From: Hydractinia symbiolongicarpus
Taxonomy: Eukaryota; Cnidaria; Hydrozoa; Anthoathecata; Hydractiniidae
DNA length: 64,000 nt
Direction: 5' to 3'
Assembly (NCBI RefSeq): GCF_029227915.1
Contig: NC_079875.1
Coordinates: forward strand, 24,312,001-24,376,000
This document shows, piece after piece, positions 5,890 to 64,000 of the stretch. The notes under the pieces are model-generated. The model saw only the letters and a list, made by a program, of their open reading frames with translations. It ran no database searches and was not told where the DNA came from. Both the position numbers and the translations under genes were made by a program. The first letter of the stretch is position 1; each line of letters starts with the position of its first letter.

Positions 5890-6785
5890 CTAGAAATGTT
5901 AATTTTTCCATTTTAGGCTACTTGTAAGGTAAGAAAATGTTAACCCTATTGGGACTTGACCTCAAAATCCCAGACAAAATACTAAAAAACAACATTTGCT
6001 TTACAACTAAACTATTGGGTTGTGTATATTCAGATGAAAAAGGTTTACAATACAGCAAGCTGCACTGAAGTATCTTGTCTACAGGGACGGTGGATGTAAA
6101 TAAAATTGGGATTAGGCTCCCAGAAGAAGGTGCTGAATACACTTTCTTGCTTATTACAAGCATGAGTACTGTCCAACTTGGACCTATAACTATTCACTGA
6201 GAAAATCATAAAGAGAAAAAACAATCCTTCAATCACAAACAATACGACACAAGACAGATCTAACAACATAAACGGACTGGTTACAGAACAAACACAAATG
6301 GAAAAAATGTATATGTCAAAAATATATATTATAAAAAAAGAATTATATAAAACCCTCCTGTGCGCCAGAACTTGTGACTCTGGCTGTAGCTTTCCACATG
6401 TGTTACAGGGCCCCAACACTCAGGCTTACACAGGAGGTTGTCATGACAGGACCAGCCTGTACATATTTTGACTAAGGACAGCAGGGTTGTCAAGCCTGAA
6501 GACCAAGTTAGTAAACTTGGGCACCTTACTGAACTGGGGTAAAAAGTGGGGTCGTTACACCCAAAGACAAGCTGAAAGCAAACCCCCTTGCTAAGCTTCT
6601 TTTAAGTTACCAGAGAAGAGTGAGCTGAACTCTTTACCCTCTGGGTATTGACGGCAAACTGGTTCGAATGAACTAGCTGGGGTAATATAAAACCGCTCGG
6701 ATTTACATTTTCCTCCCCCATGACCCTGGAAGTACAGGTTTTATAAACGTAATGATAAATGTATAAGAAAGAAAGAAAAAGCGGA

Positions 6786-7690
6786 TCAACAGCGAACGTA
6801 ACAAAGAATATAATATGAATTGTTGTTGAGAATAGGTGGAGAGCATTTGCAAACCGCTCTATCATTGCAGTGGTACCAAGAATTTGTGGCAGGATCCTTA
6901 ACATAAGCCCAATAATGACCTGCGGTTAATGTACCGGAGTGATTAATTGTTGCTAACAATGAGTAGTTCTGATTAAACATTGTGTCCGTATCACTGACGA
7001 ATGGTAGTTGCAGGAGAGAGTCACGTAAAGAAACACATTCAACAACTCTGTTGTCTTTTACCAGATGTTCACCATGTTTTAAAAACCTTTTAAGATGCAG
7101 GAATAAGATTTCACTACTCCTGCTGATTTGCGTTTCTCTAGTACTCTCTCTATGTGCAAAGCATTGCGGACAAAACCACTTGTTTCCATCAGTTAGAATT
7201 TCCGGTTCTAAAAATTTGCTGACACAAGATTGGATTTTAGATGTCATTGGCAGTGTTAAAATGTCCTGCATTTCGACATTTACCGAGGTGCACAGGCAGG
7301 TGTTACAGCTTACGGACATTGAGATTTCAGTTGAGATTTTATCTGCAGCAATCGGGGAAAATCCCTTAAGGGCGTCCAAAACCACAAACAAAATCTCTGC
7401 TACATCTTGCTGAGTATTAAATTGGAAGTCCAGTTTCCCATCAGAGTGCATTTGACGTTTAAGGGCCCAGAGAAAATTCGAAGGGTCAACAGGTGACAAT
7501 GATTGCTTCAGCTTCGCCATGTTAAGCGAAATAGACCTCGCAATAGGTGATAAATGAAACGATTCTGACCCACTCTGGCACCAGAGTGTTGGAATGGTAC
7601 TTAATACTTGCAAAATGGCGTTGGCGTAACAAGTGTTGCCTTTGTTTAAAAAACCGATGTTTTTTATAGACACTAATTGGTTGAGTGTCA
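6786..7690 (-). CDS. Ubiquitin-specific protease (USP, C19) domain, copy A
   Basis: The frame contains the Cys box GFLNKGNTCYANAILQVL (Cys at residue 43 of the 323-codon frame that begins at 7757). It has the QQD box FNTQQDVAEILFVVLDAL, two CX2C zinc-ribbon pairs (CNTC and CPQC), LHLKRF, the His box HSGTLTAGHYWAYV (His 281) and the terminal WYHCNDRAV with its Asp/Asn. All USP catalytic elements are visible, and the length of about 300 residues fits a compact USP. It follows the RLE directly; in copy B the junction is in frame, so the USP is read as the C-terminal part of the element's protein. Role in the element is unknown; removal of ubiquitin from element proteins or host factors is a guess. 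Confidence 0.85.
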
Positions 7691-9150
7691 TTTTTATTTT
7701 GGCTAACCTTTTTAGATGGCCCCTTTCGGCGAGATGAAACACCCTTGGTCTCCACAATGGGCAAAGCCTGCTTGGATTTGGGTAATTGCATTAAGGAGTC
7801 AGTTGACCAAACATTGGATTCACGTGCCAGCCAGATACAAAAAGAAGACCTCATACTGATTTTACCGAGATCATTTGCAGTGGAATAAGCAAGTTTGTTG
7901 GTGAAACCCATTCTTTTTAAACAGGCAGTGGTGGTTCTTGCACAATATCCTCTTGCTCCTACTTCCACTGCGAAGAAATCAACTTGCCAGCCATTAACCA
8001 TAATCACATTCATTAAACAGGAATATTTGGCAACTTTTGTGGAGTGCCAAGCATTCATGTTTTCCTCACATGGGCAAGTGAGTTCTACAATAATAACGCG
8101 CTTAAGGTCATTTGAATATAACACAAGGTCCGGTTTAAGCTCAGAAATGGCAATATGGCTAGGAAACACATAGTTCGAGTGTGTGTCAGCAACAATCTTC
8201 CAATCTTTGGTAAGGTGCAGTATACCTGACACTTTAGATTTTGTATGTGCCTTTGACCCGGCTCTCAGAAAGGTTATTTTTTGACAATTTTTAGGAGGTT
8301 CAGAAGGAAGCTCAAAAATGAACTTTTTCAAAGTTTCTACCAAATGGGTAAGTACAGAATCGTGTCTAAAGGTATATCTACCCTGGGAAAGAGCAGTTTT
8401 ACAAGCACCAAGAATGTGAGCAGAAGTGCAAATTTCTTTGTGACATAGGAAACATGATGGTTCTGTATTTATTTTCCACCTCCTTAGGTTACTTGGTGAT
8501 GGCAGAACATCGTAAGTGGATTGCAGGCAGAAAGATAAGAGGTTAGGAGGAGTTGCTAGGATGTTCTTCCATGAAAGATCAAACTTTACGTAGTTCTCCC
8601 ATCTTGTCCATTGGCCCTGCACCTGAAGTTGCAGTGCCTTAGATAGATAGCTTTCCTCGTCAATCTCAGCCGATGTTTTTGCGATTAACTTTCTGTACTT
8701 GTGAGTGGTTTTTGGTGGTATTACTTCCATTTTACAAATGCCAAGACCGGTTCGTCCACGCTGTACAGGACCCCTTATGGTCTTGTACTTTAATTCACCC
8801 TCAGCTATGTTAACTGCATCGCTCACCTTCCAAGAACCTGCCTTTAAAGATGGATCGAGTGTTGACAGAATCGGATCTTTGGAGTGACGCAAAAGTAGGT
8901 GGCCGCTAATCTTTGCGGATTTTAAAATAGAAGTGAGGCTCTTAATGGGCAGAGGGCAAGGAGAGGAGTCAGCATATAGGGAAATGTTTGTGATGGAACG
9001 GTGTAAGTTCAGCCATTTTCGTATGAACACTGAAACCTTTTGCTCTAGGCGCCCAGCAACAGACATCGAGACCTCGTATATTAACAGTGGCCACTGAATT
9101 CGCGGGATCAAAAGATGTTGCAAGATCCAAAGTTTTTGCGCTCCAGTGTA
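7522..9150 (-). CDS. RT thumb, zinc knuckle and restriction-like endonuclease (copy A)
   Basis: A 533-codon frame carries, in order, RT thumb sequence (residues 1-50), a connecting region (QGQWTRWENYVKFDLSW near 170), a CX2C-X8-H-X4-C zinc knuckle at residues 224-241 (CFLCHK ... HILGAC), and an RLE core with PD at 331-332 and Glu at 347 (PDLVLYS ... VIIVELTCP). It ends with SSFCIWLARES, a motif shared with the other copies. This order is that of R2/R4/NeSL-type retrotransposons, where RLE nicks the target to prime reverse transcription. The frame then runs past its natural junction; homology to the USP continues in another frame from about 7690, so one frameshift lies between. Confidence 0.8.
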   Translation of the reverse strand, partial: YTGAQKLWILQHLLIPRIQWPLLIYEVSMSVAGRLEQKVSVFIRKWLNLHRSITNISLYADSSPCPLPIKSLTSILKSAKISGHLLLRHSKDPILSTLDPSLKAGSWKVSDAVNIAEGELKYKTIRGPVQRGRTGLGICKMEVIPPKTTHKYRKLIAKTSAEIDEESYLSKALQLQVQGQWTRWENYVKFDLSWKNILATPPNLLSFCLQSTYDVLPSPSNLRRWKINTEPSCFLCHKEICTSAHILGACKTALSQGRYTFRHDSVLTHLVETLKKFIFELPSEPPKNCQKITFLRAGSKAHTKSKVSGILHLTKDWKIVADTHSNYVFPSHIAISELKPDLVLYSNDLKRVIIVELTCPCEENMNAWHSTKVAKYSCLMNVIMVNGWQVDFFAVEVGARGYCARTTTACLKRMGFTNKLAYSTANDLGKISMRSSFCIWLARESNVWSTDSLMQLPKSKQALPIVETKGVSSRRKGPSKKVSQNKNDTQPISVYKKHRFFKQRQHLLRQRHFASIKYHSNTLVPEWVRIVSFITYCEVYFA

Positions 9151-9205
9151 TAAGGACTTATTAATGACACCAAAATAAAATTAAACATTGCGAAACGTGC
9201 CTTAC

Positions 9206-12903: not shown

Positions 12904-12954
12904 CTATCTTCCTAAAGTAAACTTTGACCATTTTCTGTAGAACTGTGCTATTCT

Positions 12955-13215
12955 TTGTTTTTAACTCAGGTAATAAGTGGAGTCGTTACTCTCCAAAGAC
13001 AAGATCATGTGTGATCAAAACCCATCTGCTAATACTTTTTTTTAACTGGGGTAATAAGTGGAGTCGTCACTCTCCAAAGACAAGACCTAGTATGATCAAA
13101 CCCCCTTGCTAACTTAATTTTTATTTGATTTTGTTTTATTTTTGACTGGGGTAATAAGTGGAGTCGTCACTCTCCAAAGACAAGACTGAGTGTAGTCAAA
13201 CCCCCTTGCTGACTC
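12955..13215 (-). repeat. Three tandem 3' UTR units of the RLE/USP element
   Basis: Units of about 70-90 bp each contain the minus-strand strings AGCAAGGGGGTTTGA, CTTTGGAGAGTGACGACTCC and ACTTATTACCCCAGT. The middle string can fold as GGAG ... CTCC. Homologous units occur at about 6535-6595, 51385-51445, 52665-52965, 55610-55885 and 59730-59830, always downstream of a USP or in a UTR remnant. Confidence 0.75.
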
Positions 13216-13233: not shown

Positions 13234-14337
13234 TTATCTCAGCTCTTCTAAAACGAAAACATATGACTCGTGACTGTTTATAAGGCGGTCATCACAAAAA
13301 ATTACTGCTCTATCGTTGCAATGTATCCACCTGTGTACCATTTGGTCGAAGGCTATGGTTGTGTAGTGACCATTATTTAAGTTGCCGCAATGGTTGATAA
13401 TAGCCCTTAATTGAAAATTTTTACGAAATTTCACTTCTCCATCTACGGTTAAAGGTATGGAAAGGGTACCAGGGTAAGCAGTAATACGAGAGGCAATTTT
13501 TGACACAAGGCCGTTGGCACTGGCAAAACGTTTTAGCTGTAAAATGAGATGGGAACCGCACGACACTACCTCTTTTTTAACTAGAGCAGTTTGATGAGCG
13601 TTGCAAACATGACAGAAGTAGGCATTGGTGTCTGACAACTCCTCGCTTTCGAAGAAATTATCTAAGGAAGATTGTAACCTAGGGTGCAGAGAAAGTTGGA
13701 TGCATGGTGCTATAACTTCTGAGGAGCTGGTAATATGACATGAATTGCAAGTGGTTGATGTCTTGATACCAATACTAAAAAGACTTCCAAGAAATGGAAA
13801 TTCTAATGACAGACCAGGTAGGAGATATTCAAGAACCTCGGGGGCGTCGTGCTGAGCAAAGATATTAAATGCACTTCCCTTCGCAGCCAAGATATAATGT
13901 TTCATAGCACGCAAAAAATGGGAGGGATCAACTGGACTTCTAGAAACAGCTAAAATTTGAAGAACACCTACAAATGCTTCGCCTAACTTTGAGGTTGTTT
14001 TGCTGACAAAAATGGCTTCTTTAACTTTTGGAAGGTTATAAAAACATTGTAAGATGGAGTTTGCATAACATGTGTTTCCCAAGTTTTTTAGACCGCTATT
14101 CCTAAAATCAGGGTTAGATGGCAATACAACTGTTGTTTTGGAAGGCCTTGTAGCAGGTTTTTCGGGTTTTTTGATTTTACAAGATTTTGTGTGACTTGCA
14201 GAAGATTTCTCAAGGGTTTTTGATTTTTTACATTCCATATTTGTAACAGAAGAAACTTCAGGAATGATTGGGGCCTTTTCAGGCTCAACCCAAGTGGTAG
14301 AATTACGAGACATCCAGATGTAAAAAGAAGCACTCAT
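13234..14337 (-). CDS. RLE C-terminus fused in frame to USP domain, copy B
   Basis: A 367-codon frame without stop codons. Residues 1-16 are the end of the RLE region (SASFYIWMSRNSTTW). Residues 17-80 form a Lys/Ser/Pro-rich linker. Residues 82-367 are a USP: Cys box LKNLGNTCYANSILQCF with Cys 90, zinc pairs CNSC and CHVC, HLILQLKRF, His box NHCGNLNNGHYTTIAF with His 324, and WIHCNDRAV with Asp 342. All catalytic positions are intact although the rest of the element is missing. The sequence differs strongly from copy A, so at least two USP subfamilies exist. The first Met is probably not a true start, since homology extends a few codons upstream. Confidence 0.85.
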   Translation of the reverse strand: MSASFYIWMSRNSTTWVEPEKAPIIPEVSSVTNMECKKSKTLEKSSASHTKSCKIKKPEKPATRPSKTTVVLPSNPDFRNSGLKNLGNTCYANSILQCFYNLPKVKEAIFVSKTTSKLGEAFVGVLQILAVSRSPVDPSHFLRAMKHYILAAKGSAFNIFAQHDAPEVLEYLLPGLSLEFPFLGSLFSIGIKTSTTCNSCHITSSSEVIAPCIQLSLHPRLQSSLDNFFESEELSDTNAYFCHVCNAHQTALVKKEVVSCGSHLILQLKRFASANGLVSKIASRITAYPGTLSIPLTVDGEVKFRKNFQLRAIINHCGNLNNGHYTTIAFDQMVHRWIHCNDRAVIFCDDRLINSHESYVFVLEELR

Positions 14338-14350
14338 GGAGGTGATTCTG

Positions 14351-14799
14351 AACAGAGTCTGTTACCACGGTCATCCAACAACATAGAGACACGTAATTAT
14401 GTGCCTAAATCAACTTCTAAACGACACTTGACACCTAAACTGTTTTTCAAACCAACTAAAATTCATATTACCATAGCAACAATATGCACTTACATTGTGC
14501 CTCAAAATATCAAACAAATTTATACTGTAAAACGGCCTGTTGACACAAATCTTCAGCAAAACGTAACGCATGGGCACCTTTAGCCGTGTCCAACTCTGAA
14601 ATTAGCCGTACTAAAATCCTAAATTGTGTTTTACTTATAAAAGAGACCTGAGTACGAAGTTTTAACCGGTCTCTTAAATTGATTATAACCCATATCGCTA
14701 TGGCAACAAATAATACTCACATTGCGCTTTTTTGAAAAACACAAACAACAGTCGACAACGGCCCATTTAAATGGCCCTTCAACTATATATGGCTACACA
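14351..14799. other. No gene seen
   Basis: A+T-rich sequence between the truncated RLE/USP copy B and a LINE tail. No coding homology or repeat structure recognised. Confidence 0.4.
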
Positions 14800-22637: not shown

Positions 22638-22931
22638 TCAGGGTGCCGGAGGACGGGTGACCTTGATTCTCTTCAACGGTGCGTGACGTTCGATGCACTC
22701 AAAGAGTAGATGGTTGAGTGTGCTTAGGCTGTCATCGGTACAATCAGTTGCATAAACGACATTGAAAGGGATGGTTGCGGTGTCAGCAACATACGCCGAC
22801 AGGTCAAAATTTCTCATGTCACGAATGATCTTGTACCGTGGTTCAAATCTGGCTACACGAGTATTGATGCAAGCGAATACAGCATCGTGGTCGCTGATTT
22901 CTGGTGTTGGAAGAACTTCACAGAATTTCAC
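22638..22931 (-). pseudogene. LINE endonuclease C-terminus
   Basis: Contains EISDHDAVFACINTRV, the final SDH block of the APE endonuclease with catalytic Asp and His, and ends in RVTRPPAP before a TGA. The relative at 48 kb reads RPPAPWMKELKI through this point, so the stop is a point mutation. Confidence 0.75.
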
Positions 22932-24007
22932 TTTGCAGGAGGAATTGGTCGAGATGTGATCGAGTAGGGATAATCCTTTTCGTGATGGAGAGTTGCAGCC
23001 TGAGTGAGGACGAACGATCGAAGGGTTTCAAGGTAAGAGTCTTTAATTTGAGAGTTCTGCAAAAGATCAATATTGAAGTCACCTGTTATCACCACATTTC
23101 CTGACCATTCGAGAGTAGCGTTTCCAATGATGCGGTCGAAGTTGTCGAGCCATTCTGCTTTTTCTTGGTGTGTGAAGTTCGGCTGGTAGGCGACACAAAG
23201 GAGTAGCTTCGAGTGTTTGTTTTTCCCATCGATTTCAACCCACAAATGTTCGAGAGCTGGATTGATATTGACGATATCCTTGCGCAAATTATGCTTTATA
23301 TTATCCTTGATATAAACGCCTACACCACCACCACGCTTGTTATCTCGATTATGGTAGTACATTGTGTAACCTTCGATCTTTACGTACTCGAGTAGGAAAG
23401 GGTTGTCTTTTAGCCAGGTTTCGGTGAGGGTTATCGCATCAAAATCGTACTTGTGTACAAAAAGCACAAATTCGTCGAATGTAGACACCATTGACTGAGT
23501 GTTGAGATGAGCGATACTAAACAAGTTTCTGTTTTGGTTGAGTTGTTCGAGTTGAAGGTCTTGGAGCTGTTGTTGAGCAACTTCTTGCTCGATTTGGGAT
23601 AGGTCTCGGACGTTGCAAAATGGTAGGATGGAAGGCAAGCAGTTCGGACACAACCAGTCGGTTATTGTAGATTTTCTTTTAGGATCGACACAACGGAGAT
23701 GAGTCTTCTGTTGGCATCGACAGCAGCTGACGAGTTTGCTGTTTTTGCGAACCGTTTTCGGACACAGGGAACACGAGGACGGTCCAGGATTCGATTTGAC
23801 ATCGCCGGACAAAAGAATATCAGTACCTGAGATCTTAAGCTGAAATGTAGCAGAATGGTTTGCGTACAGACGGATTGGCGAGCAGAATCTTCGCTTGTTG
23901 TTGTTTTTCGTAGGAGCAAATCTCGATCTGTCGGTCGACTTTTCCAATCTGCACGACAAAAAATACACCCGAAGAAGCAGCGTGACAATCTTCTTCTTTT
24001 GAAACAT
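22928..24007 (-). pseudogene. LINE N-terminus: 2A-like motif, PHD finger, endonuclease
   Basis: The first 67 residues are basic and then hydrophobic. GDVKSNPGP at residues 68-76 resembles a 2A ribosome-skipping motif, except that the usual Glu is Lys. A C4HC3 PHD-type finger follows (CSLCPKTV ... CCRCQQKTHLRC ... WLCPNC, about 79-125). The APE endonuclease starts near 165 with LNTQSM, then TETWLKDN, GGGVGVYIKD and VITGDFNIDLL. The catalytic Asn, Glu and Asp positions are visible. PHD fingers in LINE N-termini are known from CR1-type elements. The frame ends in unrelated residues after a frameshift near 22930. Confidence 0.8.
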
Positions 24008-24010
24008 GTT

Positions 24011-26075
24011 TAAGCTCTTAAAACTGCAAGTTCGTCAAAAATTTTGCGAAAAAACTTCTAAATTTTTACTTTTTGAACGTCAGTTGAAAAAAAACGTCAG
24101 TTCGTTAGCTTGCAGCCGTTAGCGCACTTTTTGAAATGTTATTATTGTTCATGTTTCTTGCATATTGCAGTGAAAAAGGCATGAAATATATATCTTGTTC
24201 GCTTGGTTTATTTGATAAATTAGTGAAATTTCTAGTAGCTAGCTGATAAACATGTTTTTTTTCAGAAAGCAACGAAAAGCTAATATATATTTTAGTTGTC
24301 GTTCATTAGGTACAAGCCTTTTTATGTTTTGTCAGGAATGCATTATTTCCCCTTAGAAGGGCTTTTGTGCAAAAAAAATTTTGCATTTTTCTTTTTTAGA
24401 TTGATTTTGTTTACTTTTACTTTACTAAAAACATGTACTTCGGCATACTTTTCGTCAAGCACGTGGCGAGTTTTCAAAAAATTGACGTAATAGCCGATAT
24501 CTCCCAGCTTGAATGCCAAGCGGCTTCTTGTTACAAGATCGTGAGCTTGTATTAAAACGCAAATGTGTCCCACAAGAATGGAAATTTTTGCCTCTCTGAG
24601 CACCGAAACGGGAGTAGTCGTGTGTTCGAATCTCATCTTGGTAACTATTTTTTCTTTGCTGTTATAAAATTTTATTTTTTAAACAGATAAGATAAGTGTT
24701 TAAAAGCATTATTTAACTAACTGGTAAAGTAAAGGTGTTTCCACCAAAGTTTACAAAAGTGAATGTAGGCTAAATTAAGGTCTCCCCAAATGCCTGGAAA
24801 GTAGTCTGCGAAAAATAAAATTTCCACATTGAGTAAGAAAGAAACGAAGACGCTCCACCATATCAATTTATTAAATATTTCGATTTTACAAAAGTTGGTT
24901 AAAATATAAGCGAAAGGCAAATTATATAATGACGAGAACGCAATTCTTTTCGCTACGCTAATGACACGCCAACATAGAGAAATATGATTTCGGAAACACT
25001 CCGAAAGAACGTAAATTTTCCGATTCCCTTCTCGTTCTTTATCTCTGTGCCATAAGTGCGCAGGATTGTTTTTAATTTAGTTTGCTGTTTGTGACAGTTC
25101 TGGTAATATATATTTTTTAACTAGCTATTTCCTTTTTCGAACAATTAAGATTTACTCGTACATTATTTTTTTATTTTGCTTTTTCTCACTGAGTGACTCT
25201 CTTATAACCCGTTCTTTTTTTTTTTTTGGGGGGGGTGTACTTAAAGTTTGGAGGAATTTTCCGTTAAGAAGATCTCACAAATCAATTTTGAAAAATAATT
25301 GCCGTGTGTAACAAATATTATTGCCTATCTGAATAGCAAAATATGTCGTGTCTAACTACGTAACAGAAATCACAATCTGATAGACAGCTTTTTGTAAACT
25401 TTATCCGCGAGGTTGTTTACGTATCTCATACGTCTTGTTTATTTTAATTTCCTTTGATGTTTGGATTTTTTATTATCCATTTTTAATTGAAATAATGCTT
25501 GCTGTTAAAATTTTGGCGGATATGACAAAAATCCGCTTTCTTGTTTGCCTTGCATTTACTTTTTTCAAGATATCGAGTTTCTACCAGGGACGAGTGTTAA
25601 ACCGACCCTTGCCATGTCAATCTACATTTTCAAAGGAATAAATAGGATTTTGTAATTTAATATTATGAACAATTATTAGTAATATCGTACAAATAAAACC
25701 TATCTATATCTAATTACTGCAGGCATATTGGGGAACGACCACGTTTAAATATAAAAATTCTCAAATCGCTTTTTGAGGTGCTATTGTTAAGCTGTTATAA
25801 GCTGTTTTATACCTAAAAAGGCCTAAATTTGACATTTTTGTGCTGGTGTCAGCCTTTTTTGTGTTAAAATTTTAAAAAAAAATCGATGCTATCATTTGAC
25901 AGGAAAAAAAAGCTGTTTTAAAAAATGGTATGGTTTTCCATCTTACGATTTGCTGTTTAGGAGATATTCAATGTTCAAAAATGAACAAAAGTCAAATTTT
26001 TGCTAAGTCAGCACATTTCTTAAGTAAACACCCCCAATATGCCTATATATAAATAAAATTAAAAAAATAAAAACA
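24011..26075. other. No gene seen; A+T-rich intergenic sequence
   Basis: Only short frames without recognisable homology. A poly-T/poly-G run lies near 25213-25235. A B-box-like string (gtgttcgaatctc) lies near 24615 but without a tRNA fold. Confidence 0.45.
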
Positions 26076-33021: not shown

Positions 33022-33029
33022 ATCTTAAG

Positions 33030-49174: not shown

Positions 49175-49305
49175 CCTACTCTTGATAACCTGCAGTTGGA
49201 AGTACAAGGGCAGTGGACCAGATGGGAGAATTACATCCGAAATGACCTGTCCTGGAAATCCATTCTTACCGTGGCACCAAACTTGCTTTCTTTCTGCATA
49301 GATTA
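49175..49305 (+). pseudogene. RLE-element fragment (copy C)
   Basis: The plus strand reads LEVQGQWTRWENYIRNDLSW then LLSFCI, closely matching copy A (LQVQGQWTRWENYVKFDLSW). It breaks off at about 49305 into RT sequence of copy D. Only some 40 codons are present. Confidence 0.7.
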
Positions 49306-51364
49306 TCAATCATACTATTTTTGGCAGCTATAAATGTAATCATTGAGTATGTGTGCGCCTAAGAAGAGTTAAAAAGTTGTGTTCCGCTTGGCGATTCAGA
49401 CCATCCTCCGGTTAAAGCCTTTATGGATGACATATTTTTAATGTCTTCAAGTGTCCCTCAAACTCAAAACTTGTTGGATCGTTGTGTAACAGCCCTTCAT
49501 TGGGCTGGAATGGGCTTTAGACCTTCAAAATCACGAAGCATTGTTATAGCTAATGGAAAAGTTTTAGATCAGTCTCCTTTTTGTGTCCTGCAAGAACCAA
49601 TCCCATCTATTTACGCAAACCCAGTTAAGTTTCTTGGCCGGACGATAAATTCAACATTGTCAGATTCAGCTGTTGTCCAACAGGTTATTGTTAACGCTGT
49701 AGAGCAAGTCAAACTCATAGATAAGTCTTCCCATAGAGGCATTCACAAAGTGTGGTTTTTGCATCATCTTCTAATTCCCCGAATACGATGACCTTTTTTA
49801 ATTTACGAAGTTCCGATATCTCGTATTGTTTCACTATAACAAAAGTTTTCTTTCTTCATAAGAAAGTGGCTGAGACTCCATCACTCTATTTCTAACATAA
49901 GTTTGTATTCCGCTTCATCTCCGAGATTTGGCTGATCCTCTAGTCTCAGACTCTCCCCCAGACTTAAAGGCTGGACACTGGAAGGTAGATCAAACAGTAA
50001 AATCAGCAGAGAGTCAACTCGAGTTCAAGAAAATACTTGGTTTCCACCAGTTTGGTAGAGCAGGCTTGGGACTGGTAAGCCATAGGAGTGTCCCAGCAAT
50101 TGGTACCCATTCTTACCGCAAACTTGTATCAGATGTTGTGCAGGACAATGAGGAAGACATCTATTATGCTCAAGCCGTTCAGCTTCATGTCCAAGGTAAC
50201 TGGACTAAATGGTGCTCGTTTATTAAATACGATCTTTCTTGGAAGAGCCTACTGTCTCTGCCGCAAAGTTTATTTTCGTTTTGAATCGGCGCAACCTATG
50301 ACACGCTTCCTTCTCCTACAAATCTTGTCAAGTGGGGAATTCAAAATGACAAAAGTTGCACCCTATGTAAAAAACCCTCTTGTAACGTGTCCCACATTTT
50401 AGGCGCTTGTAAATTAGCCCTTTCACAAGGTAGATTTACGTACCGCCACGATACTGTTCTACGTGTGTTAGTGACAGCCATTCAGAAGTTCTTATTCGAT
50501 TATGATTATTACATAATTATGATTATTACAAAACCATCTAGATGTCATAAAATATGCTTTGTTCCAGCTGGTACACGTCTTCCTACCAAAAAAGCGTTCA
50601 AAAATTCAGGGAATCCTTCACCTGGCCGCTGATTGAGATTATTGTCAGACTTAGATTCGACCTTAATAGTACCACCATATCTTGCTGTAACTCAACTTCG
50701 TCCAGACATACTTTTAACTTCTGCCATGACCAAAACTGTAATTATCCTTGAATTAACTTGCCTATGCAAAGAGAACATGGAGACTTGGCATGGAGTTAAG
50801 GTTGATAAATACTCGTCACTTTGTTCTGTCATGAGATTAAACAATTGGTCTGTGCATTTCTTTGCTGTTGAAGTAGGAGCAAGGGGATTTTGTTCCGAAA
50901 CAGTTGTAGCACCATGCATCCAGCTTTCTCTGCACCCTACGTGCGAGGAGTTGTCAGACACCAATGCCTACTTCTGCCATGTTTGCAACACTCATCAAAC
51001 TGCTCTAGTTTAAAAAGAGGTAGTATCGTGCGGTTCCCATCTCATTTTACAGCTAAAACGTTTTGCCAGTGCCAACGGCCTTGTGTCAAAAATTGCCTCC
51101 GGTATTACTGCTTACCTTGGTACCCTTTCCATACCTTTTACCGTAGATGGAGAAGTGAAATTTCGTAAAATATTTCAATTAAGGGCTATTATCAACCATT
51201 GCTGCAAGTTAAATAATGGTCACTACACAACCATAGCCTTCGACCAAATGGTTCACAGGTGGATACATTGCAACGATAGAGCAGTAATTTTCTGTGATGA
51301 CCGCCTTATTAACAGTCACGAGTCATGTTTTCTTTTTAGAAGAGTTGAGGTAAGAATATTTTAA
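49306..51364 (+). mobile_element. RLE-class LINE with USP, copy D (RT to USP, internally deleted)
   Basis: In order: RT catalytic block (KAFMDDIFLMSSSVPQTQNL), KFLGRTINSTLSDSAVVQQV, thumb (KVWFLHHLLIPRIR then stop), connecting region (QGNWTKWCSFIKYDLSW), zinc knuckle CTLCKKPSCNVSHILGAC, RLE core (RPDILLTSAMTKTVIILELT) and then, after a deletion, the USP from APCIQLSLHP onward. The RT part is nearly identical to copy E at 57.2-57.7 kb. Multiple stops and frame changes; not functional. Confidence 0.8.
50890..51364 (+). pseudogene. USP C-terminal half, copy D
   Basis: The reading jumps from the RLE (VEVGARGFCSETV) straight into the USP (VAPCIQLSLHP, then CEELSDTNAYFCHVC), so the RLE C-terminus, linker and USP Cys box are deleted. 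A stop follows HQTALV; then HLILQLKRFASANGLVSKIA, the His box region NHCCKLNNGHYTTIAF and WIHCNDRAVIFCDD. The His box has Cys in place of Gly. Confidence 0.75.
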
Positions 51365-51835: not shown

Positions 51836-52640
51836 TCACTAAATTTGGGCAACACATTTTACATCAATTCTATCTTGCAATGTTTTTATGTGTTACCCGC
51901 AGTCGATTTCAATATGGCGATAGGTAAAAGTTTTGTGAGTATTCTACGCAAACTATTCTCCTCCAAGGTTCCAGTGAACACTTCTTCATTTCTAAATGCA
52001 TTAAAAGGCCATGTTTCTAATGCAAGGGGTGCTGCTTTTAATCCGTTCTCTCAGCAAGATGCCCTAGAGATTCTTGAGTATCTCATACCAGAGTTCTCCT
52101 TAGCCTTTCCTTTCTTTGGCTCGTGTGAAAATCTGCACTACTTGCAGCGCTTGCAATAATATTAGCACCTCTGAGCAAGTAAGTCCATTTCTTCAACTGC
52201 CCTTGACATCGACTGTACAATCTTCAATAGATGGCTTTTTGGAGAGTGAAGAATTGTCAGGTGTCAACTCGTACTTCTGTCACTACTGCAATAGTTACCA
52301 AACTGCAACAGTTGAAAAAGAGGTCGCAGAGTGCAGTTCAACATTGGTTCTGCAGTTAAAGCGCTTTGTCTAAGGTTTGTTCTCCTGTCACATCTTACCC
52401 GGGCACCGTTTCCATACCTATCACTGTAGACAGTGAAGTATCTTGTCGCAAGCACTACAACTTAAGGGCTGTAATTAACCACTCTGGAAATTTGAACAAT
52501 GGCCATTACACTACTGTTGCTTATAACCAAGTGCATGGTAAGTGGTTTCATTGCAACGACAGAGCAGTGGTCCCTTGAAAACAAAGCTTGATTAATGGTG
52601 TACAACCTTACATCCCTTTCCTTGAAGAGCTTAGGTAGAT
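51836..52640 (+). pseudogene. USP domain, copy F, catalytic Cys replaced
   Basis: A third USP subfamily: LNLGNTFYINSILQCFYVLP (the Cys box Cys is Phe), FNPFSQQDALEILEYLIP, CSACNN and CHYCNS zinc pairs, STLVLQLKRF, INHSGNLNNGHYTTVAY and WFHCNDRAV. There are frame breaks near 52130 and 52370 and a stop just after RAVVP. The replaced Cys makes it catalytically dead even apart from the frame breaks. Confidence 0.75.
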
Positions 52641-53325: not shown

Positions 53326-54059
53326 CAGCTTGCTGTTTTGTCACCTTATTATCAATCTTATAACGTTTTACCGTCACCCAGCAACTTAAATCGTTGGAAC
53401 ATTTGCACTGAATCCAGTTGTTCCTTGTGTAGAAAACTTTTATGCACAACAGCACATGTCTTAGGCTCTTGCGAGGTTGCCCTTACTCAAGGCTGATTTT
53501 CTTTCTGTTCTCTGTGAGCTCAAAAGATACCATTTGTTAAAGCAGGTAAATCCCTTCCACTAAGCATTGGACATTAAAACCGTGTAAAGTTGTTTTGCAA
53601 GATGTACTAACTGTTGATTCCACTGAAATGACAGATGAACGATCCTTCACGCCATATACCTCTTTTAGATCTCCCTGGATTGCCTTCACCACCAAAACTA
53701 GTCTCAGCTTTCGATTCTTCCAAGCTAAAGTTCAAGGATTTCCAAGCTGTCTTACATTCTCGTTGTTTTCGTTGCTTTGGTTTCCCTAACAAGCCTTTAC
53801 GTTCCCTATTAAAATCCCTAACTTTTACCTCCATGAGTGCTTTTTTTTACATCTGGATGTCTCGAAATTCTACCACTTGGGTTGAGCCTGAAAAGGCCCC
53901 AATCATTCCTGAAGTTTCTTCTGTTACAAATATGGAATGTAAGAAATCAAAAAACCCTGAGAAATCTTCCGCAAGTCACACAAAATCTTGTAAAATCAAA
54001 AAACCCAAAAAACTTGCTACGGAGAGAAACCTCCTTTTTTTAATTAAACTTTCCGTCTT

Positions 54060-54480
54060 AAAAGACTAGTTTTATCTGCATTGCGATGTAGTTACTCCTA
54101 TTCTCTTTTTCCTGTTTCTTACACAGATCCAGTTGACTGCCAGGAAAGACTGGTCGACACTGGGGAAGACCACTGACGGTGGGAAAGACCATAGATCGCG
54201 AAGGTTTTTCGGTTTTGGTGACTGAAGAGTGTGTGTTCTTCATTGGTTAGGATGGGTCATCAGTTACAATCTCGAGACGATTGATAACTCCTTCCAAAGA
54301 ATGGAGTGTGGCGGATTTCGAAGCATAAAAGTTGACTGGGTGGTGAGGTGAATTACTTGTTTAAGCTCGAGACGATATGTAATGGTTTTCTGGGTTGCCG
54401 CCGCTGGGTTCCAAGTCTACCTTTCTAAGGGGCGGTTTCTTGGTCAGCCCAAGCATTACGATACGATTTCTCAAGTGTTC
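54060..54480. repeat. About 400-bp repeat, inverted relative to 12.14-12.56 kb
   Basis: It includes the short imperfect tandem units (gactgccaggaaagactggt, cgacactggggaagaccact, gacggtgggaaagacc) and the string gttccaagtctacctttcta, all found in reverse complement at 12.2-12.5 kb. Confidence 0.6.
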
Positions 54481-54879
54481 ATGTCAAAGGTCAGAAAGCT
54501 TTTCTGTTTCCAGGTTTGCTGCTTTTTATTCTTTGTCACAACCTCTCTAAGGGCTGGGTTCCAAGTCTACCTCTCTTAGCCCTGGGCTCTGGGTTAGTAG
54601 GTAAAAGCAACAACGATACGATTTGCAGCTGTCGACTTTTCTTTTTCCAAAGTTTAACAAAAGTTATTGGTTTTGGCGGACAGTGTCAATGAATGTGGCT
54701 GGTGTCTTACAGGAGGCAGGGGATGCTTACTCAAAGGCCCGCACCAGATCCCAAGCATGAGTAAATTTCACCAATCCTCGTGTTTCCACATTCATAGGTG
54801 TTTGTTTCAGTACAGTTGAAATCCATTAACTTTCCGATTATCCCTGTAAAGGAGAGAATGCAGAAGTTCTCCAGCAGCA
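54481..54879. other. No gene seen within copy G
   Basis: A partial second copy of the string ctgggttccaagtctacct lies near 54555. Otherwise nothing recognised. Confidence 0.4.
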
Positions 54880-55588
54880 AACAAAACAACCTCAAAGTTG
54901 GGCAAAGCATTTGTAGGTGTTCTTCAAAGTTTGGCTGTTTCTAGAAGTCCAGTTGATCCCTCCCATTTTTGCGTGCTATGAAACATCATATCTCAGCTGC
55001 GAAGGGAAGTGCATTTAATATCTTTGCTCAGCACGAAGTCTTTTTAGTATTGGTATCAAGACATCAACCACTTGCAATTCATGTCATATTACCAGCTCCT
55101 CAGAAGTTATTGCACCATGCATCCAAATTTCTCTGTACCCTACGTTACAATCTTCCTTAGATAATTTCTTCGAAAGCGAGGAGTTGTCAGACACCAATGC
55201 CTACTTCTGTCATGTTTGCAACGCTCATCAAACTGCTCTAGTTAAAAAAGAGGTAGTGTCGTGCGGTTTCCATCTCATTTTACAGCTAAAACGTTTTGCC
55301 AGTGCCAACGGCCTTGTGTCAAAAATTGCCTCTCGTATTACTGCTTACCCTGGTACCCCTTCCATACCTTTTGCCGTAGATGGAGAAGTAAAATTTCGTA
55401 AAATATTTCAATTAAGGGCTATTATCAACCATTGCGGCAACTTAAATAATGGTCACTACACAACCATAGCCTTCGACCAAATGGTTCACAGGTGGATACA
55501 TTGCAACGATAGAGCAGTAATTTTCTGTGATGACCGCCTTATTAACAGTCACGAGTCATATTTTTTCTTTTTAGAAGAGCTGAGATAA
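54880..55588 (+). pseudogene. USP domain, copy G
   Basis: The N-terminal part (FLRAMKHHISAAKGSAFNIF) is broken. From 55184 the frame is open for 134 codons: SDTNAYFCHVCNAHQTALVK, HLILQLKRFASANGLVSKIA, NHCGNLNNGHYTTIAF, WIHCNDRAVIFCDD and SYFFFLEELR with stop. The His box and terminal Asp/Asn are intact, but the Cys box is missing. Closest to copy B. Confidence 0.75.
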
Positions 55589-56002
55589 GAATATTTTAAC
55601 CGGAATGAGTCAGCAAGGGGGCTTGACTACACTCAGTCTTGTCTTTGGAGAGTGACGACTCCACTTATTACCCCAGTCAACAATAAAACAAAATCAAATA
55701 AAAATTAAGTTAGCAAAGGGGTTTGATCATACTAGGTCTTGTCTTTGGAGAGTGACGACTCCACTTATTACCCCAGTTAAAAAAAAATAATAATAATAAA
55801 AAAAATATTAGCAGGGGGGGGGGGTTGATCACACATGATCTTGTCTTTGGAGAGTAACGACTCCACTTATTGCCTGAGTTTAAAACAAAGAATAGTACCG
55901 TTGAACAGAAAGTGGTCAAAGTTAATTTTAGGAAGATAGGGATGTATAGTTTCTGCTGATGACCGTCCGCGGACCTCTTCGAGGTGACCCAGCTAGACAT
56001 CC
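55589..56002 (+). other. 3' UTR units and stem-loop of copy G
   Basis: Three UTR repeat units (about 55610-55885) and the stem-loop (55940-56002, arms ggatgtatag and ctagacatcc with one mismatch). Right after the stem-loop the sequence turns into RT N-terminal coding sequence of copy E, so the distal UTR is missing. Confidence 0.65.
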
Positions 56003-57720
56003 ACGAACTTGGAGCGCTCTCAAGAATGCTGTTTTCCACAACCTGTTAGGATCTCACCCTTTGTCAGAGAGAATGGAAATTCTGGAATCCACAATTTACC
56101 ATCATTCTTCCCTTCTCTTTGGATTTAAGGCTCAACCCACACATGCCCCATCTGGTTTAAACAGACGTGCCTTACAGTTGGTCATGTCGTTGGTAAAAGA
56201 GAAAAATTCTCTTCTTCAACAACTGGAAAACGTGTCGGACTCAATGCAGAGGGAACATTTACAAACTTCGCTAGGCAATGTTAAATTAAAGTTAACAACA
56301 TTACGCCGGGGAGAACGGAACAGAAAAAAGCAATGGAAGATCCGCAATGCAAACTGTGCATTTGGTAAGAATCCTTATCAGGCTGGTAAAGATCTGCTGG
56401 ATCCCAAATGCTCTATTAGGCTTAATGTTCCTAAAGAATCCCTAGATGCCCACAAATCTTCCGTGTTAGTTGATCCCTTATATGAGATACCGCTTTCGAC
56501 TCTTCCTGGTTTGCCTAGTGCTCCCAACGTCACGTCTGCATTTGATTCCTCCAAGTTTAATTTCAAGGACTTTCAAACCATCCTTCATACTCGGCGGAAT
56601 GCATCGTCACCCGGATTGCACCAAATACCTTACACTGTTTACAAGAATTGTCCTCAAAGTGCGTCCTTTCTTTTCAACCTTTTCCAATCTTGTTTAAAGA
56701 ATTCCTACATTCCTGTTCAGTGGAGGGTCGCTTCAGAAGTTTATAACCCTAAAAACAAGCCTCCATCTCCATCATCCATTAAGGAGTTTCGGCCAATAGC
56801 TCTCCTCAATGTGGAAGGAAAACATTTTTTCAGTCTTGTGTCAAAGCGCCTAGAAAACCACATCATTCAGAAAAACCAATTTATTAACAAATCCATTCAA
56901 AAAGGATGTATGGAAAAAGTTCTTGGTTGCTGGGAGCATATGTCTCTTGTCTGGGCTGCTCTGAGAAACGCCGTCTAGAAAAAATGCACTATCTGCAATA
57001 TGGCTGGATGTGGCGAATGCGTATCCCATTATACCGCATAAACTCATTTTCATGGCCCTTCGTCGCTATGGTGTTTCAGAGTCTTGGTTAAGGCTTATTA
57101 ATGCCTACTATGGCAGCCTCTGGAGCAAGTCATTCTCTTTTACAACCTCATCCAGCTGGCACCAACACTTTAGAGGTATTTTTATTGGATGTACATTATC
57201 AATCATACTATTTTTGGCAGCTATAAATGTAATCATTGAGTATGTGTGCGCCTAAGAAGAGTTAAAAAGTTGTGTTCCGCTTGGCGATTCAGACCATCCT
57301 CCGGTTAAAGCCTTTATGGATGACATATTTTTAATGTCTTCAAGTGTCCCTCAAACTCAAAACTTGTTGGATCGTTGTGTAACAGCCCTTCATTGGGCTG
57401 GGATGGACTTTAGACGAAGCATTGTTATAGCTAATGGAAAAGTTTTAGATCAGTCTCCTTTTTGTGTCCTGCAAGAACCAATCCCATCTATTCACGCAAA
57501 CCCAGTTAAGTTTCTTGGCCGAACGATAAATTCAACATTGTCAGATTCAGCTGTTGTCCAACAGGTTATTGTTAACGCTGTAGAGCAAGTCAAACTCATA
57601 GATAAGTCTTCCCATAGAGGCATTCACAAAGTGTGGTTTTTGCATCATCTTCTAATTCCCCAAATACGATGGTCTTTTTTAATTTACGAAGTTCCGATAT
57701 CTCGTATTGTTTCACTATAA
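56003..57720 (+). pseudogene. RLE-type LINE reverse transcriptase, copy E
   Basis: The frame to 56978 carries an N-terminal helical region (LVMSLVKEKNSLLQQLENVS), then RT blocks: NASSPGLHQIPYTVYKNCP, VQWRVASEVYNPKNKPPSP, FRPIALLNVEGKHFFSLVS and NKSIQKGCMEKVLGCWEH. After a frameshift near 56978 it reads IWLDVANAYPIIPHKLIFMA (first catalytic Asp), FRGIFIGCTLSIILFLAAIN and, after a stop, KAFMDDIFLMSS (catalytic Asp pair). The WLDxANAYxxxPH block is typical of R2/R4/NeSL-like RTs and unlike CR1 or RTE. The thumb ends in KVWFLHHLLIPQIRWSFLIY, which joins the first residues of copy A. Confidence 0.8.
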
Positions 57721-58318
57721 CAAAAGTTTTCTTTCTTCATAAGAAAGTGGCTGAGACTCCATCACTCTATTGCTAACATAAGTTTGTATTCCGCTTCATC
57801 GCCATGCCCGTTACCTTTAAAAAGTCTATCCTCTGTACTAAAATCTGCTAAGATCAGCGGTCATCTTCTCCTCCGAGATTTGGCTGATCCTCCAGTCTCA
57901 GACTCTCCCCCAGACTTATAGGCTGGACACTGGAAGGAAGATCAAACAGTAGAATCAGCAGAGAGTCAACTCGAGTTCAAGAAAATACTTGGTTTCCACC
58001 AGTTTGGTAGAGCAGGCTTAGGACTGGTAAGCCATAAGAGTGTCCCAGCAATTGGTACCCATTCTTACCGCAAACTTGTATCAGATGTTGTGCAGGACAA
58101 TGAGGAAGACATCATTATGCTCAAGCCGTTCAGCTTCATGTCCAAGGTGACTGGACTAAATGGTGCTCGTTTATTAAATACGATCTTTCTTGGAAGAACC
58201 TACTGTCTCTGCCGCAAAGTTTATTTTCGTTTTGGATCGGCGCAACCTATGACACGCTTCCTTCTCCTACAAATCTTGTCAAGTGGGGAATTCTGAAATT
58301 AACATATCCTTAGCAGCA
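56003..58318 (+). mobile_element. RLE-class LINE, copy E (RT region, no RLE core or USP)
   Basis: It supplies the RT of the family. N-terminal sequence, RT domains and the thumb through the connecting region (ARLLNTIFLGR region, shifted frame) are present to about 58318, where the direct duplication begins. From 57190 to 57720 it is nearly identical to copy D. Frame breaks occur near 56978 and 57255 and later. Confidence 0.8.
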
Positions 58319-58479
58319 ATCTGTTCTGCGGGCGGTGGTCGCCTTGAATTGGTTGCAAGCATTAAAAAACGACCGATAATTCCGTTACCATTATCCAATT
58401 GGGATAGTATGAAAGCCATACTTTTAACTTAAGTTGAACCTGCTTTAAGGAAAAGAAATGTAATGATAATTAAAGACGG

Positions 58480-58690
58480 TTAACATGGCGAAGCTAAAGC
58501 AACCATTGTCACCTGTTGACCCTTCGAATTTTCTCTGGGCTCCTTGAACGTCAAATGCAATCTGATGGGAAAGTGGACTTTCAATTTAACACTCAGCAAG
58601 ATGTAGTATAGATTTTGTTTGTGGTTTTGGACGCACTTAGGGATTTTCCCCTGTGCGCCTCGGTAAATGTCGAAATGTAGGACATTTTAA
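58480..58690 (+). pseudogene. USP fragment of the copy A subfamily, decayed
   Basis: The reading MAKLKQPLSPVDPSNFLWA, then FQFNTQQ-like sequence, matches copy A (MAKLKQSLSPVDPSNFLWAL), with several stops. It ends at about 58690 where a UTR segment (gaaatatgggtcgaaaccta) begins. The same fragment lies in the right-hand duplication copy near 62885-63100. Confidence 0.7.
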
Positions 58691-58694
58691 CACT

Positions 58695-59010
58695 GCCACA
58701 GAAATATGGGTCGAAACCTACCTACCCTTGGTTAAAGTTCTGTTCATCTTTTCAAATGTGTTGTGTCCTTTTTATTTTTTTATATTTTTTTAATTAATTC
58801 CTTGCAAAAAGGGAGAATTGTGCTTTTAGAGGCATTTTCTCTAGAGGAGTACAACCTCTAGCTTATTTCCAAAGACCTAACAGGTTGAGTTCATCATTGC
58901 GGTGGCTTGCCACCTCTTTGTAAATTATTTTCTTCTCTTCCAAAGACCTAACAGGTTGAGTTCATCATTGCGGTGGCTTGCCATCTCTTTTGTAAATTAT
59001 TTTCTTTAGA
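58695..59010 (+). other. 3' UTR fragment of RLE/USP element with duplicated terminus
   Basis: Distal UTR including aagggagaattgtgctttta and the hairpin ggtggcttgccacc. The last 60-70 bp (from ccaaagacctaacaggttga to ttgtaaattattttctt) are present twice in tandem (about 58871-58935 and 58940-59008). Confidence 0.7.
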
Positions 59011-62746: not shown

Positions 62747-64000
62747 GCCTTGAATTGGTTGCAAGCATTAAAAAACGACCGATAATTCCGTTACCATTAT
62801 CCAATTGGGATAGTATGAAAGCCATACTTTTAACTTAAGTTGAACCTGCTTTAAGGAAAAGAAATGTAATGATAATTAAAGACGGTTAACATGGCGAAGC
62901 TAAAGCAACCATTGTCACCTGTTGACCCTTCGAATTTTCTCTGGGCTCCTTGAACGTCAAATGCAATCTGATGGGAAAGTGGACTTTCAATTTAACACTC
63001 AGCAAGATGTAGTATAGATTTTGTTTGTGGTTTTGGACGCACTTAGGGATTTTCCCCTGTGCGCCTCGGTAAATGTCGAAATGTAGGACATTTTAACACT
63101 GCCACAGAAATATGGGTCGAAACCTACCTACCCTTGGTTAAAGTTCTGTTCATCTTTTCAAATGTGTTGTGTCCTTTTTATTTTTTTATATTTTTTTAAT
63201 TAATTCCTTGCAAAAAGGGAGAATTGTGCTTTTAGAGGCATTTTCTCTAGAGGAGTACAACCTCTAGCTTATTTCCAAAGACCTAACAGGTTGAGTTCAT
63301 CATTGCGGTGGCTTGCCACCTCTTTGTAAATTATTTTCTTCTCTTCCAAAGACCTAACAGGTTGAGTTCATCATTGCGGTGGCTTGCCATCTCTTTTGTA
63401 AATTATTTTCTTTAGAAAATAAAATATATAAAACAAAAATAGTAAACACTTTTATTATAACTACCAGGTTAAGTCACTTGAGAGAGAAGTTGTGTAACTA
63501 CTGATGACCTGAAAGGGACCTTAGTTAAGGTGAACCCGCTCAACTTCTTAGTGCACCAGTTAGTTCAGTGAAAAGGTTCAAAGCTGTTGGTGTACTTTGT
63601 GGGATTGGGCACGTAGTAGTCATAATAAAAATAAAAATAAAAACAAATAAAAATTAAAAAATAGTAAAACATGAAAACAAATAAATTTACTTCCCTTGGT
63701 TCGTCGCTTGAACTGTATGTCATGGTATTGATAATCTTAAGATTGGAACGGCTGGTGGCTCTCCGTTAGTTTTTAGGATGTGTAGTTGGTAGCGCTCTAC
63801 ATATGTGTATTCCCAGTGGCAATGTCTATGAATACCTTGTTGTTTCGATTTTTTATCTTTGTCAATATATGCATGGTATTTATGGATTAGTCTTGGTATT
63901 CTAAGAATTCATGATGTTGTGGTTGATACCGCTCCACTAGTACGTGTAAAATGTCGGAGGTAGCGCTTGTGTTAAGTTTCAGTCTTGAATACTACATTTG
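62747..64000 (+). repeat. Direct duplication, right copy (runs off the window)
   Basis: Near-identical to 58341-59594. The sequence just before 62747 differs from that before 58341, so 62747 is the real left edge of the duplication. The right edge lies beyond the window. It contains the same decayed USP fragment and UTR fragment. Confidence 0.85.

What the first reader, a model, noticed from the sequence alone, without database searches (positions are those of the whole stretch)
6786..9150. RLE-class LINE whose protein ends in a ubiquitin-specific protease
Seen: RT thumb, CX2C-X8-H-X4-C zinc knuckle, PD...E endonuclease, then a complete USP with Cys, QQD, zinc ribbon and His boxes. Copy B at 13234-14337 joins the RLE C-terminus to the USP in one open frame, and copies D and G repeat the arrangement, so it is a family trait and not a chance insertion. 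Known: NeSL and Utopia elements of the same broad class carry Ulp1-type (SUMO) proteases. I am not aware of a USP at the C-terminus of such an element; that is from memory, not a search.
Basis: partly seen in the sequence, partly recalled or inferred. Interest (0 to 1): 0.88.

Follow-up and report, generated by a model that had tools for sequence, protein, structure and literature searches.

The report
Jumping gene carrying a ubiquitin-removing enzyme
A family of R2-like jumping genes in this genome makes one long protein that ends in a complete, conserved ubiquitin-removing enzyme, which suggests the element brings its own tool for tampering with the host's protein-tagging system.

Summary
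Window copy A (6032-9173, minus strand) is a 5'-truncated, 99.6% identical copy of an element whose intact relatives in the same genome encode one 1426-aa protein: R2-like reverse transcriptase, zinc knuckle, restriction-like endonuclease (RLE), then a complete ubiquitin-specific protease (USP, PF00443). Nine scored genome copies align over all 1426 residues; seven have no stop. RLE and USP occur together in seven related groups in this genome (USP identity to A down to 31%). RLE and USP trees share one family topology. All 26 open-frame USPs checked keep the Cys, His, Asn/Asp and zinc motifs. Between two sister families dN/dS is 0.09 (RT), 0.10 (RLE), 0.12 (USP), but 1.01 in the linker (rough: dS is high). 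So the USP is an old, selected part of the element. Ulp1 proteases in NeSL/Utopia are N-terminal and a different family; eight searches of open-licence papers listed no RLE LINE with a USP. Unexpectedly, all six full-length family-A copies examined sit directly behind a piece of their own 3'UTR, a HeT-A-like layout. Not settled: enzyme activity and substrate, RT clade, whether USP-less relatives exist, other hosts.

The parts
6032..9173 (-). Copy A: 5'-truncated RLE LINE, 99.6% identical to the intact element in L031 (3126-6266); 3' end at 6032
   Evidence: blastn; the 3' end agrees within 3 nt with L031, L032, L040, L041, L042, L043 and L046
7525..9180 (-). Open frame with the end of the RT, zinc knuckle and RLE (first 7 nt lie outside the element match)
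   Evidence: zf-RVT E 1.3e-5, just under its cut-off
8401..8454 (-). CX2C-X8-H-X4-C zinc knuckle
   Evidence: sequence; the four residues are invariant in the three sequences of alignment A3
8083..8133 (-). RLE PD...E catalytic motif
   Evidence: sequence; P979, D980, E995 invariant in the three sequences of A3
6798..7658 (-). USP catalytic domain of copy A; one frameshift in the linker just upstream separates it from the RLE frame in this copy
   Evidence: Cys, QQD, two CXXC, GHY, CND present
6032..6788 (-). 3'UTR of copy A (757 nt); the same sequence, whole or in part, lies upstream of full-length copies elsewhere
13237..14361 (-). Copy B: RLE C-terminal tail (by eye) in one open frame with a complete USP (USP at 13255-14094), family B
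49190..51355 (+). Copy C: RT/RLE joined to the C-terminal half of a B-type USP (internal deletion, decayed)
51842..52635 (+). Copy E: USP of a third type (like L007), three frames, decayed, Cys box changed
   Evidence: resemblance to L007 and Cys box by eye
53356..55585 (+). Copy F: RLE pieces and B-type USP, decayed
56004..58698 (+). Copy G: RT and RLE pieces ending in an A-like USP fragment, lying inside the 3'UTR of copy F (13 nt of that 3'UTR missing); a mosaic
62882..63104 (+). Copy H: duplicate of the A-like USP fragment of copy G

Best explanation
It is an RLE-class, R2-like non-LTR retrotransposon lineage whose single polyprotein (1426 aa in family A) ends in a USP-class deubiquitinase that is kept by selection as an element function. 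Shown by sequence: the one-frame fusion, recent multiplication, 5' truncation with a constant 3' end as expected of target-primed reverse transcription, inheritance of the USP with the RLE over long divergence, and intact catalytic residues. Inferred: the USP removes ubiquitin in cis, from the element's own protein and RNP (or from host proteins holding it), so the complex survives proteasomal turnover long enough to nick DNA and reverse transcribe. Also inferred: transcripts start upstream in a neighbouring copy, so new insertions often carry a piece of 3'UTR ahead of the 5'UTR.
For: Domain content of the two 1426-aa proteins: RVT_1 E 8e-16, zf-RVT 5e-5 (under cut-off), UCH E 4e-32; for one of them R2 retrotransposon structures 9nl2 E 6e-20, 9nl3 and 9dou over the RT, and USP8, USP15, USP2 over the end. 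Intact copies: 9 rows align over 1-1426, 7 without a stop, on five contigs (33 of 3457 candidates scored). 24 of the 30 best USP hits have the RLE upstream within 1.5 kb. Same family topology in RLE and USP trees of 11 copies; RLE and USP distances r = 0.997 over 210 pairs of 21 copies, inflated by many near-identical copies. dN/dS of family A against sister array C13: RT 0.09, RLE 0.10, USP 0.12, linker 1.01 over 42 codons. Cys, His, Asn/Asp and both CXXC in 26 of 26 open USPs. No GG dipeptide in the family-A protein, so no ubiquitin-like site for the USP to process its own chain.
Against: No activity, expression or substrate data. The cis-protection step rests on analogy: Helitron VTD/OTU domains are proposed, not shown, to protect transposition proteins (PMC9741609, passages). 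The USP structure model failed (pLDDT 30.5), so fold support is by sequence only. The dN/dS values are rough: dS is 1.35 (RT), 2.1 (RLE) and 2.2 (USP), the linker stretch (residues 1090-1135) overlaps the end of the RLE stretch, and in A against A2 the linker gives 0.66, not 1. The USP changes more in amino acids than the RT (pN 0.366 against 0.192, A against A2), which would also suit a trans substrate in an arms race.
Confidence: 0.55

Rival explanations
1. Same element, but the USP acts in trans at the insertion site: carried by the RLE to nicked DNA, it removes ubiquitin from histones or repair factors, dampening the damage response or opening chromatin.
For: The USP lies directly behind the endonuclease in one protein. 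The Ginger authors proposed that OTU/Ulp1 domains act on DNA repair (PMC2836005, passages). Histones and repair factors are established USP substrates (general knowledge).
Against: No extra chromatin-binding domain was found by Pfam; no direct data.
Confidence: 0.3
2. The USP is a polyprotein-processing protease that cuts the element protein.
For: Viral deubiquitinases often also process polyproteins (PMC9741609, passages). The RLE-USP linker is fast-evolving.
Against: USPs cut after a ubiquitin C-terminal Gly-Gly (general knowledge); the family-A protein has no GG in 1426 aa and the A2 frame read has one, at its residue 112, far from the RLE-USP border. No ubiquitin-like domain reaches a Pfam cut-off (APG12, E 0.04, at 676-730, is below its cut-off).
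Confidence: 0.06
3. The USP is a passenger: a host USP fragment carried along or amplified by segmental duplication, with no role for the element.
For: Many copies are decayed, and tandem arrays exist. Close pairs inside families have dN/dS 0.38-0.90 (three pairs).
Against: dN/dS 0.12 in the USP against 1.01 in the linker between sister families; 26 of 26 open copies keep the Cys, His, Asn/Asp and zinc motifs; matching trees in diverged families; different 3' flanks at seven family-A insertions (by eye).
Confidence: 0.03
4. For the layout: the element inserts into its own 3' end (self-targeting), rather than being transcribed from an upstream copy.
For: Exact 3'UTR-to-5'UTR joint in 6 of 6 copies; tandem arrays.
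Against: 0 of 7 truncated copies with upstream sequence to read (window A, L049, L026, L009, L010, L016, L017) have a same-family 3'UTR before them, as self-targeting would require; only 143 and 187 nt were readable at L016 and L017, and a USP fragment precedes L017. L018 was left out: an inverted piece precedes it. The start points of the upstream 3'UTR piece vary (111 to more than 753 nt).
Confidence: 0.2

Closest known systems
NeSL and Utopia RLE retrotransposons with an N-terminal Ulp1-like protease (PMC4640811, passages)
   Same: RLE class; a cysteine protease of the ubiquitin/SUMO system in the element protein
   Different: There the domain is Ulp1 and N-terminal; here it is a USP (C19) at the C-terminus. 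No Ulp1 hit in the two 1426-aa proteins.
R2 retrotransposons (PDB 9nl2, 9nl3, 9dou, 8gh6)
   Same: RT homology over about 430 residues; single ORF; zinc knuckle and RLE after the RT
   Different: No 28S or other Rfam family at the flanks read; no USP in R2 (recalled)
Ginger1 DNA transposons with C-terminal OTU or Ulp1 (PMC2836005, passages)
   Same: C-terminal ubiquitin/SUMO protease on the mobility protein
   Different: Cut-and-paste DNA transposon; other protease families
IS5-like transposase with Peptidase C19 in Trichomonas vaginalis (XP_001314237.1, mentioned in PMC2836005, passages)
   Same: The same protease family (C19) joined to a mobility enzyme
   Different: DNA transposase, one protein mentioned; not a retrotransposon
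Helitron VTD and OTU deubiquitinases (PMC9741609, passages)
   Same: Transposon-encoded deubiquitinase; VTD activity reported there, OTU untested
   Different: Rolling-circle DNA transposon; unrelated protease families. A Helitron-like frame with a weak OTU match lies in this same window.
LINEs with a C-terminal helicase (R1/TRAS; PMC6338049 passages; PMC4686597, start of abstract in the listing)
   Same: Accessory enzyme added behind the RT of a LINE
   Different: Helicase of viral origin; TRAS/R1 is an APE-class LINE (recalled)
HeT-A/TAHRE (PMC5537684, passages)
   Same: Head-to-tail copies, with a 3'UTR directly ahead of the next 5'UTR
   Different: HeT-A is telomeric, with promoter activity reported in the 3'UTR; here copies lie in varied flanks and promoter use is inferred

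Membership tests
RLE-class (R2-like) non-LTR retrotransposon | RT of the R2 kind | tested here: met
   RVT_1 E 8e-16; R2 chains E to 6e-20 and, for family B, 2e-13
RLE-class (R2-like) non-LTR retrotransposon | CCHC knuckle and PD...E endonuclease behind the RT | tested here: met
   Sequence; the residues are invariant in three families. zf-RVT is just under its Pfam cut-off, and no Pfam model hit the RLE itself
RLE-class (R2-like) non-LTR retrotransposon | 5'-truncated copies with a constant 3' end, no LTR or integrase | tested here: met
   19 of 22 rows end at residue 1426 with varied starts; 3' ends agree within 3 nt; no integrase in Pfam
RLE-class (R2-like) non-LTR retrotransposon | N-terminal zinc fingers or Myb (R2, Utopia) | tested here: inconclusive
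   No Pfam zinc finger in the N-terminal part; no dedicated search was made
NeSL/Utopia | Ulp1-like protease (NeSL; one Utopia) | tested here: not met
   No Ulp1/C48 hit at E 1 or better in the two intact proteins
NeSL/Utopia | Insertion in U2 snRNA genes (Utopia) | tested here: not met
   No Rfam family at gathering score in 10 family-A loci, which hold four outer 5' flanks of 707-1105 nt and six 3' flanks of 588-945 nt; five outer 5' flanks and seven 3' flanks look unlike each other by eye
NeSL/Utopia | Insertion in spliced-leader genes (NeSL) | tested here: inconclusive
   Only the Rfam scan bears on it
NeSL/Utopia | Place in the RT tree | not testable with these tools
   No reference RT sequences of Repbase clades; the homologue database was switched off
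USP (peptidase C19) deubiquitinase | Cys box, QQD box, His box with Asn/Asp, zinc ribbon | tested here: met
   26 of 26 copies chosen for an open USP frame have Cys, His, N/D and two CXXC; the QQD box is QQH in L007 and QHD in copy B. L004, L005, L013 and L020 were not open and not counted. Profile aligned to USP8 and USP15
USP (peptidase C19) deubiquitinase | Deubiquitinating activity | not testable with these tools
   Needs the expressed protein
HeT-A-like head-to-tail element | 3'UTR directly ahead of the next 5'UTR | tested here: met
   6 of 6 full-length family-A copies read upstream; also sister array L047 and one family-A2 copy (L050)
HeT-A-like head-to-tail element | Promoter in the 3'UTR driving the downstream copy | not testable with these tools
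   No transcript data

The most novel reading that the evidence does not exclude
A lineage of R2-like LINEs that made a deubiquitinase an inherited part of its integration machine: the USP rides with the endonuclease to the cut site and edits ubiquitin on chromatin or repair proteins there, while the lineage moves as a head-to-tail, transcribed-through element. That would be a new way for a retrotransposon to control the host response at its own insertion.
Probability: 0.25. Interest if true: 0.88.

Novelty: new variant of a known kind. Interest (0 to 1): 0.74.

Why it matters
Ubiquitin and SUMO proteases turn up in DNA transposons (Ginger1, Helitrons) and in NeSL/Utopia, with roles that the passages read here call proposed, not proven. 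Here a USP is fixed in a retrotransposon lineage with recent intact copies, measured selection on the domain and a set of related families. That makes the question 'what does a transposon want with a deubiquitinase?' directly testable with one small (about 290 aa) catalytic domain and a single catalytic residue. The head-to-tail layout is a second lead: a LINE with something like terminal repeats.

Tried and rejected
Chance insertion or assembly chimera: rejected by intact copies at separate places with different 3' flanks. Passenger domain: rejected by selection and motif retention. USP-less sister: the C13 array looked USP-less (match ends at residue 1084), but its DNA holds a decayed USP. 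Copies G and H as independent fusions: rejected, G is a mosaic whose USP fragment stops inside the domain. Ribozyme or known RNA at the joint: none (the one hit, E 8, is at chance level). Target site: no shared sequence seen by eye in five outer 5' flanks (L034's printed flank is still element sequence) or in seven 3' flanks; one family-A2 copy (L049) sits in a Helitron with about 6-11 nt of target missing, depending on where the ends are drawn, and no clear duplication.

Led nowhere: AlphaFold model of the USP from two sequences (pLDDT 30.5), so no fold search was made. Viral contigs, GTDB genomes, plasmids and phages gave no relative. The host species was not identified. L037, L038 and L039 gave no family-A UTR match and were left out of the count of six: L037 and L038 lie at family-A2 copies, L039 lies upstream of a copy truncated at residue 88. 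L044 gave no family-A match and was not studied further. In one search the script stopped in its last comparison with a division by zero; the earlier comparisons stand. Literature: searches found no paper holding all the terms; others (248 papers, 20 listed; 23, 20 listed; 2; 5; 29, 20 listed) were judged by titles and starts of abstracts, with passages read in PMC4640811, PMC9741609, PMC13188248, PMC5348765, PMC2836005 and PMC6338049; the five papers, which hold both terms, were not opened.

Full report
What is in the window. On the minus strand, 7790-6786 is an open frame holding a complete USP (PF00443, E 3.4e-33, profile 1-254 of 254), and the overlapping frame 9180-7522 holds the end of an RT, a CX2C-X8-H-X4-C knuckle and a PD...E endonuclease. 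Copy B (14361-13234) runs in one open frame from what looks by eye like the RLE tail into a second USP (E 1.5e-31). The two USPs are only about 32% identical and RLE_A is about 47% identical to that of copy C, so the window holds different families, not one duplicated block. Copies C and F repeat the order in decayed form; G is a mosaic.

The intact element. The window lies at contig C1:24312001-24376000 of a 481-Mb genome. The genome search with PF00443 returned 150 matches from 149 scored candidates of 1016 first-look candidates, many with long open frames. Two full copies were read (L031, L032). Each has one frame of 1426 aa, a 5' region of about 333 nt and a 3'UTR of about 757 nt, and the two are 99.7% identical over 5848 nt. 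Window copy A is a 5'-truncated copy, 99.6% identical to L031 over 3142 nt. Pfam finds RVT_1 (339-609), zf-RVT (828-892, just under cut-off) and UCH (1137-1423) in both proteins. PDB sequences give R2 retrotransposon proteins over 289-720 and USP8, USP15 and USP2 over the end.

How general is the fusion. The search with the intact protein scored 33 of 3457 candidates and gave 41 rows, so its counts are of a capped list. Twenty-two rows have 97% identity or more. Nine cover residues 1-1426, seven of those without a stop; 19 of 22 reach residue 1426; two more (ending at 1161 and 1145) continue into the USP in an adjoining frame (rows); one, covering 135-787, lacks it. Of the 30 best USP hits fetched, 24 have the RLE upstream within 1.5 kb on the same strand. 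The six others are L001 and L002, 28% and 24% similar to the element USP and probably host genes (inference), and L003, L010, L013 and L020, which show the USP only. Groups: A; sister array A' on C13 (about 75% in DNA; L047); A2 (56-58%; L049 has an open frame of 1422 codons, of which about the first 20 are Helitron sequence because the copy is truncated near its start); A3 (L006, L012, L015); B (copy B, L048); B2 (L007); Bx (L005). L048, the one family-B copy read at length, has a stop before the USP and lacks the Cys box (by eye), so family B is known open only from copy B's RLE tail and USP.

Is the USP kept. RLE and USP trees of 11 copies have the same family topology (unrooted: A2 next to A3; A with A'; B with B2, then Bx); only the order of three near-identical A2 copies differs, with support under 0.76. 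Supports between families are 0.977 or more, except 0.805 on one USP branch. Between families, synonymous sites in the USP are saturated (pS 0.74-0.89) while pN is 0.275-0.512. In the comparison least saturated (A against A'), dN/dS is 0.22 N-terminus, 0.09 RT, 0.10 RLE, 0.12 USP and 1.01 in 42 linker codons; dS is 1.35 to 2.2 in RT, RLE and USP, so the ratios are rough, and A' is decayed now, so they average selected and unselected time. In A against A2 the linker gives 0.66. Close pairs inside families give higher ratios (0.38, 0.73 and 0.90 in the three pairs with at least 15 differences), as expected of recent copies that decay freely. All 26 copies chosen for an open USP frame (24 of the 28 loci L003-L030, plus window A and B) keep GNTCY, GHY, C[ND]D and two CXXC; the QQD box is QQH in L007 and QHD in copy B.

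How it may work. The protein is an R2-like endonuclease and RT with a C-terminal USP. The USP, closest in sequence to solved USP8, USP15 and USP2, has no added targeting domain, so the rest of the element protein must supply the target: itself and its RNP (cis), or host proteins at the cut site (trans). I favour cis protection (0.55) over trans editing (0.3), because the fusion gives one active site per element protein and the same role is proposed for Helitron deubiquitinases (PMC9741609, passages). Self-processing is unlikely: the family-A protein has no GG. These steps are inference; only the sequence facts are shown.

Layout. In 6 of 6 full-length family-A copies whose upstream side was read (L031-L036), the 5'UTR is joined directly to the 3' end of another 3'UTR piece; this piece is 753 nt or more in L031 and L034, 479 in L032, 289 in L033, 204 in L035 and 111 in L036. 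The same joint is in A' (L047) and in one A2 copy (L050). Five outer 5' flanks look different by eye. None of 7 truncated copies with readable upstream sequence has a same-family 3'UTR before it (window A, L049, L026, L009, L010, L016, L017; only 143 and 187 nt readable at the last two); L018, preceded by an inverted piece, was left out. The simplest reading is that the RNA starts in an upstream copy and is cut short at varied points during target-primed reverse transcription, much as HeT-A uses the 3'UTR of its upstream neighbour (PMC5537684, passages). No RNA data were available.

Compared with what is known. NeSL and one Utopia element have an N-terminal Ulp1-like domain (PMC4640811, passages). 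Ginger1 DNA transposons have C-terminal OTU or Ulp1, and a C19 peptidase joined to a Transposase_11 domain in Trichomonas is mentioned (PMC2836005, passages). Helitrons carry VTD and OTU. In the searches (open-licence PubMed Central papers only) no listed title or abstract start names a USP in an RLE or other LINE; most listed papers were not opened. Subscription papers, Repbase reports and preprints were not searchable. Hence 'new variant of a known kind'.

Limits. One host only, unnamed. The clade is not placed. USP-less distant relatives were not excluded (24 tries to unanswered). Activity is untested.

Noticed in passing
L031 143-898, L032 708-1187, L033 953-1243, L034, L035, L036; also L047, L050: The full-length copies read upstream are each preceded by a piece of their own 3'UTR joined exactly to the 5'UTR, a HeT-A-like or pLTR-like layout.
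   Followed up: partly
window 34929-36731 (-), with a similar start at 44222-44977 (-): Helitron-like frame with a weak OTU match (E 2.4e-4, just under cut-off) and a DxExNPGP 2A-like motif (recalled motif) near its start; a PIF1 helicase lies at 30619-33024. A second ubiquitin-system protease in a different mobile element of the same window.
   Followed up: partly
window 22928-24034 (-): APE-type LINE frame with a PHD finger just under its Pfam cut-off and a 2A-like DVKSNPGP motif (recalled motif) ahead of it.
   Followed up: partly
L049 789-5800 against window 32480-32487: A near-full-length family-A2 copy sits in a Helitron copy with about 6-11 nt of the target missing and no clear target-site duplication.
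   Followed up: partly
window 12950-13214 and 55582-55900: Tandem repeats of about 80-100 nt with the core TCTTTGGAGAGTGACGACTCCACTT behind family-B USP ends.
   Followed up: no
L018 1-626 and 624-3126 (element sense): Two family-A pieces in opposite orientation meet within 3 nt.
   Followed up: no
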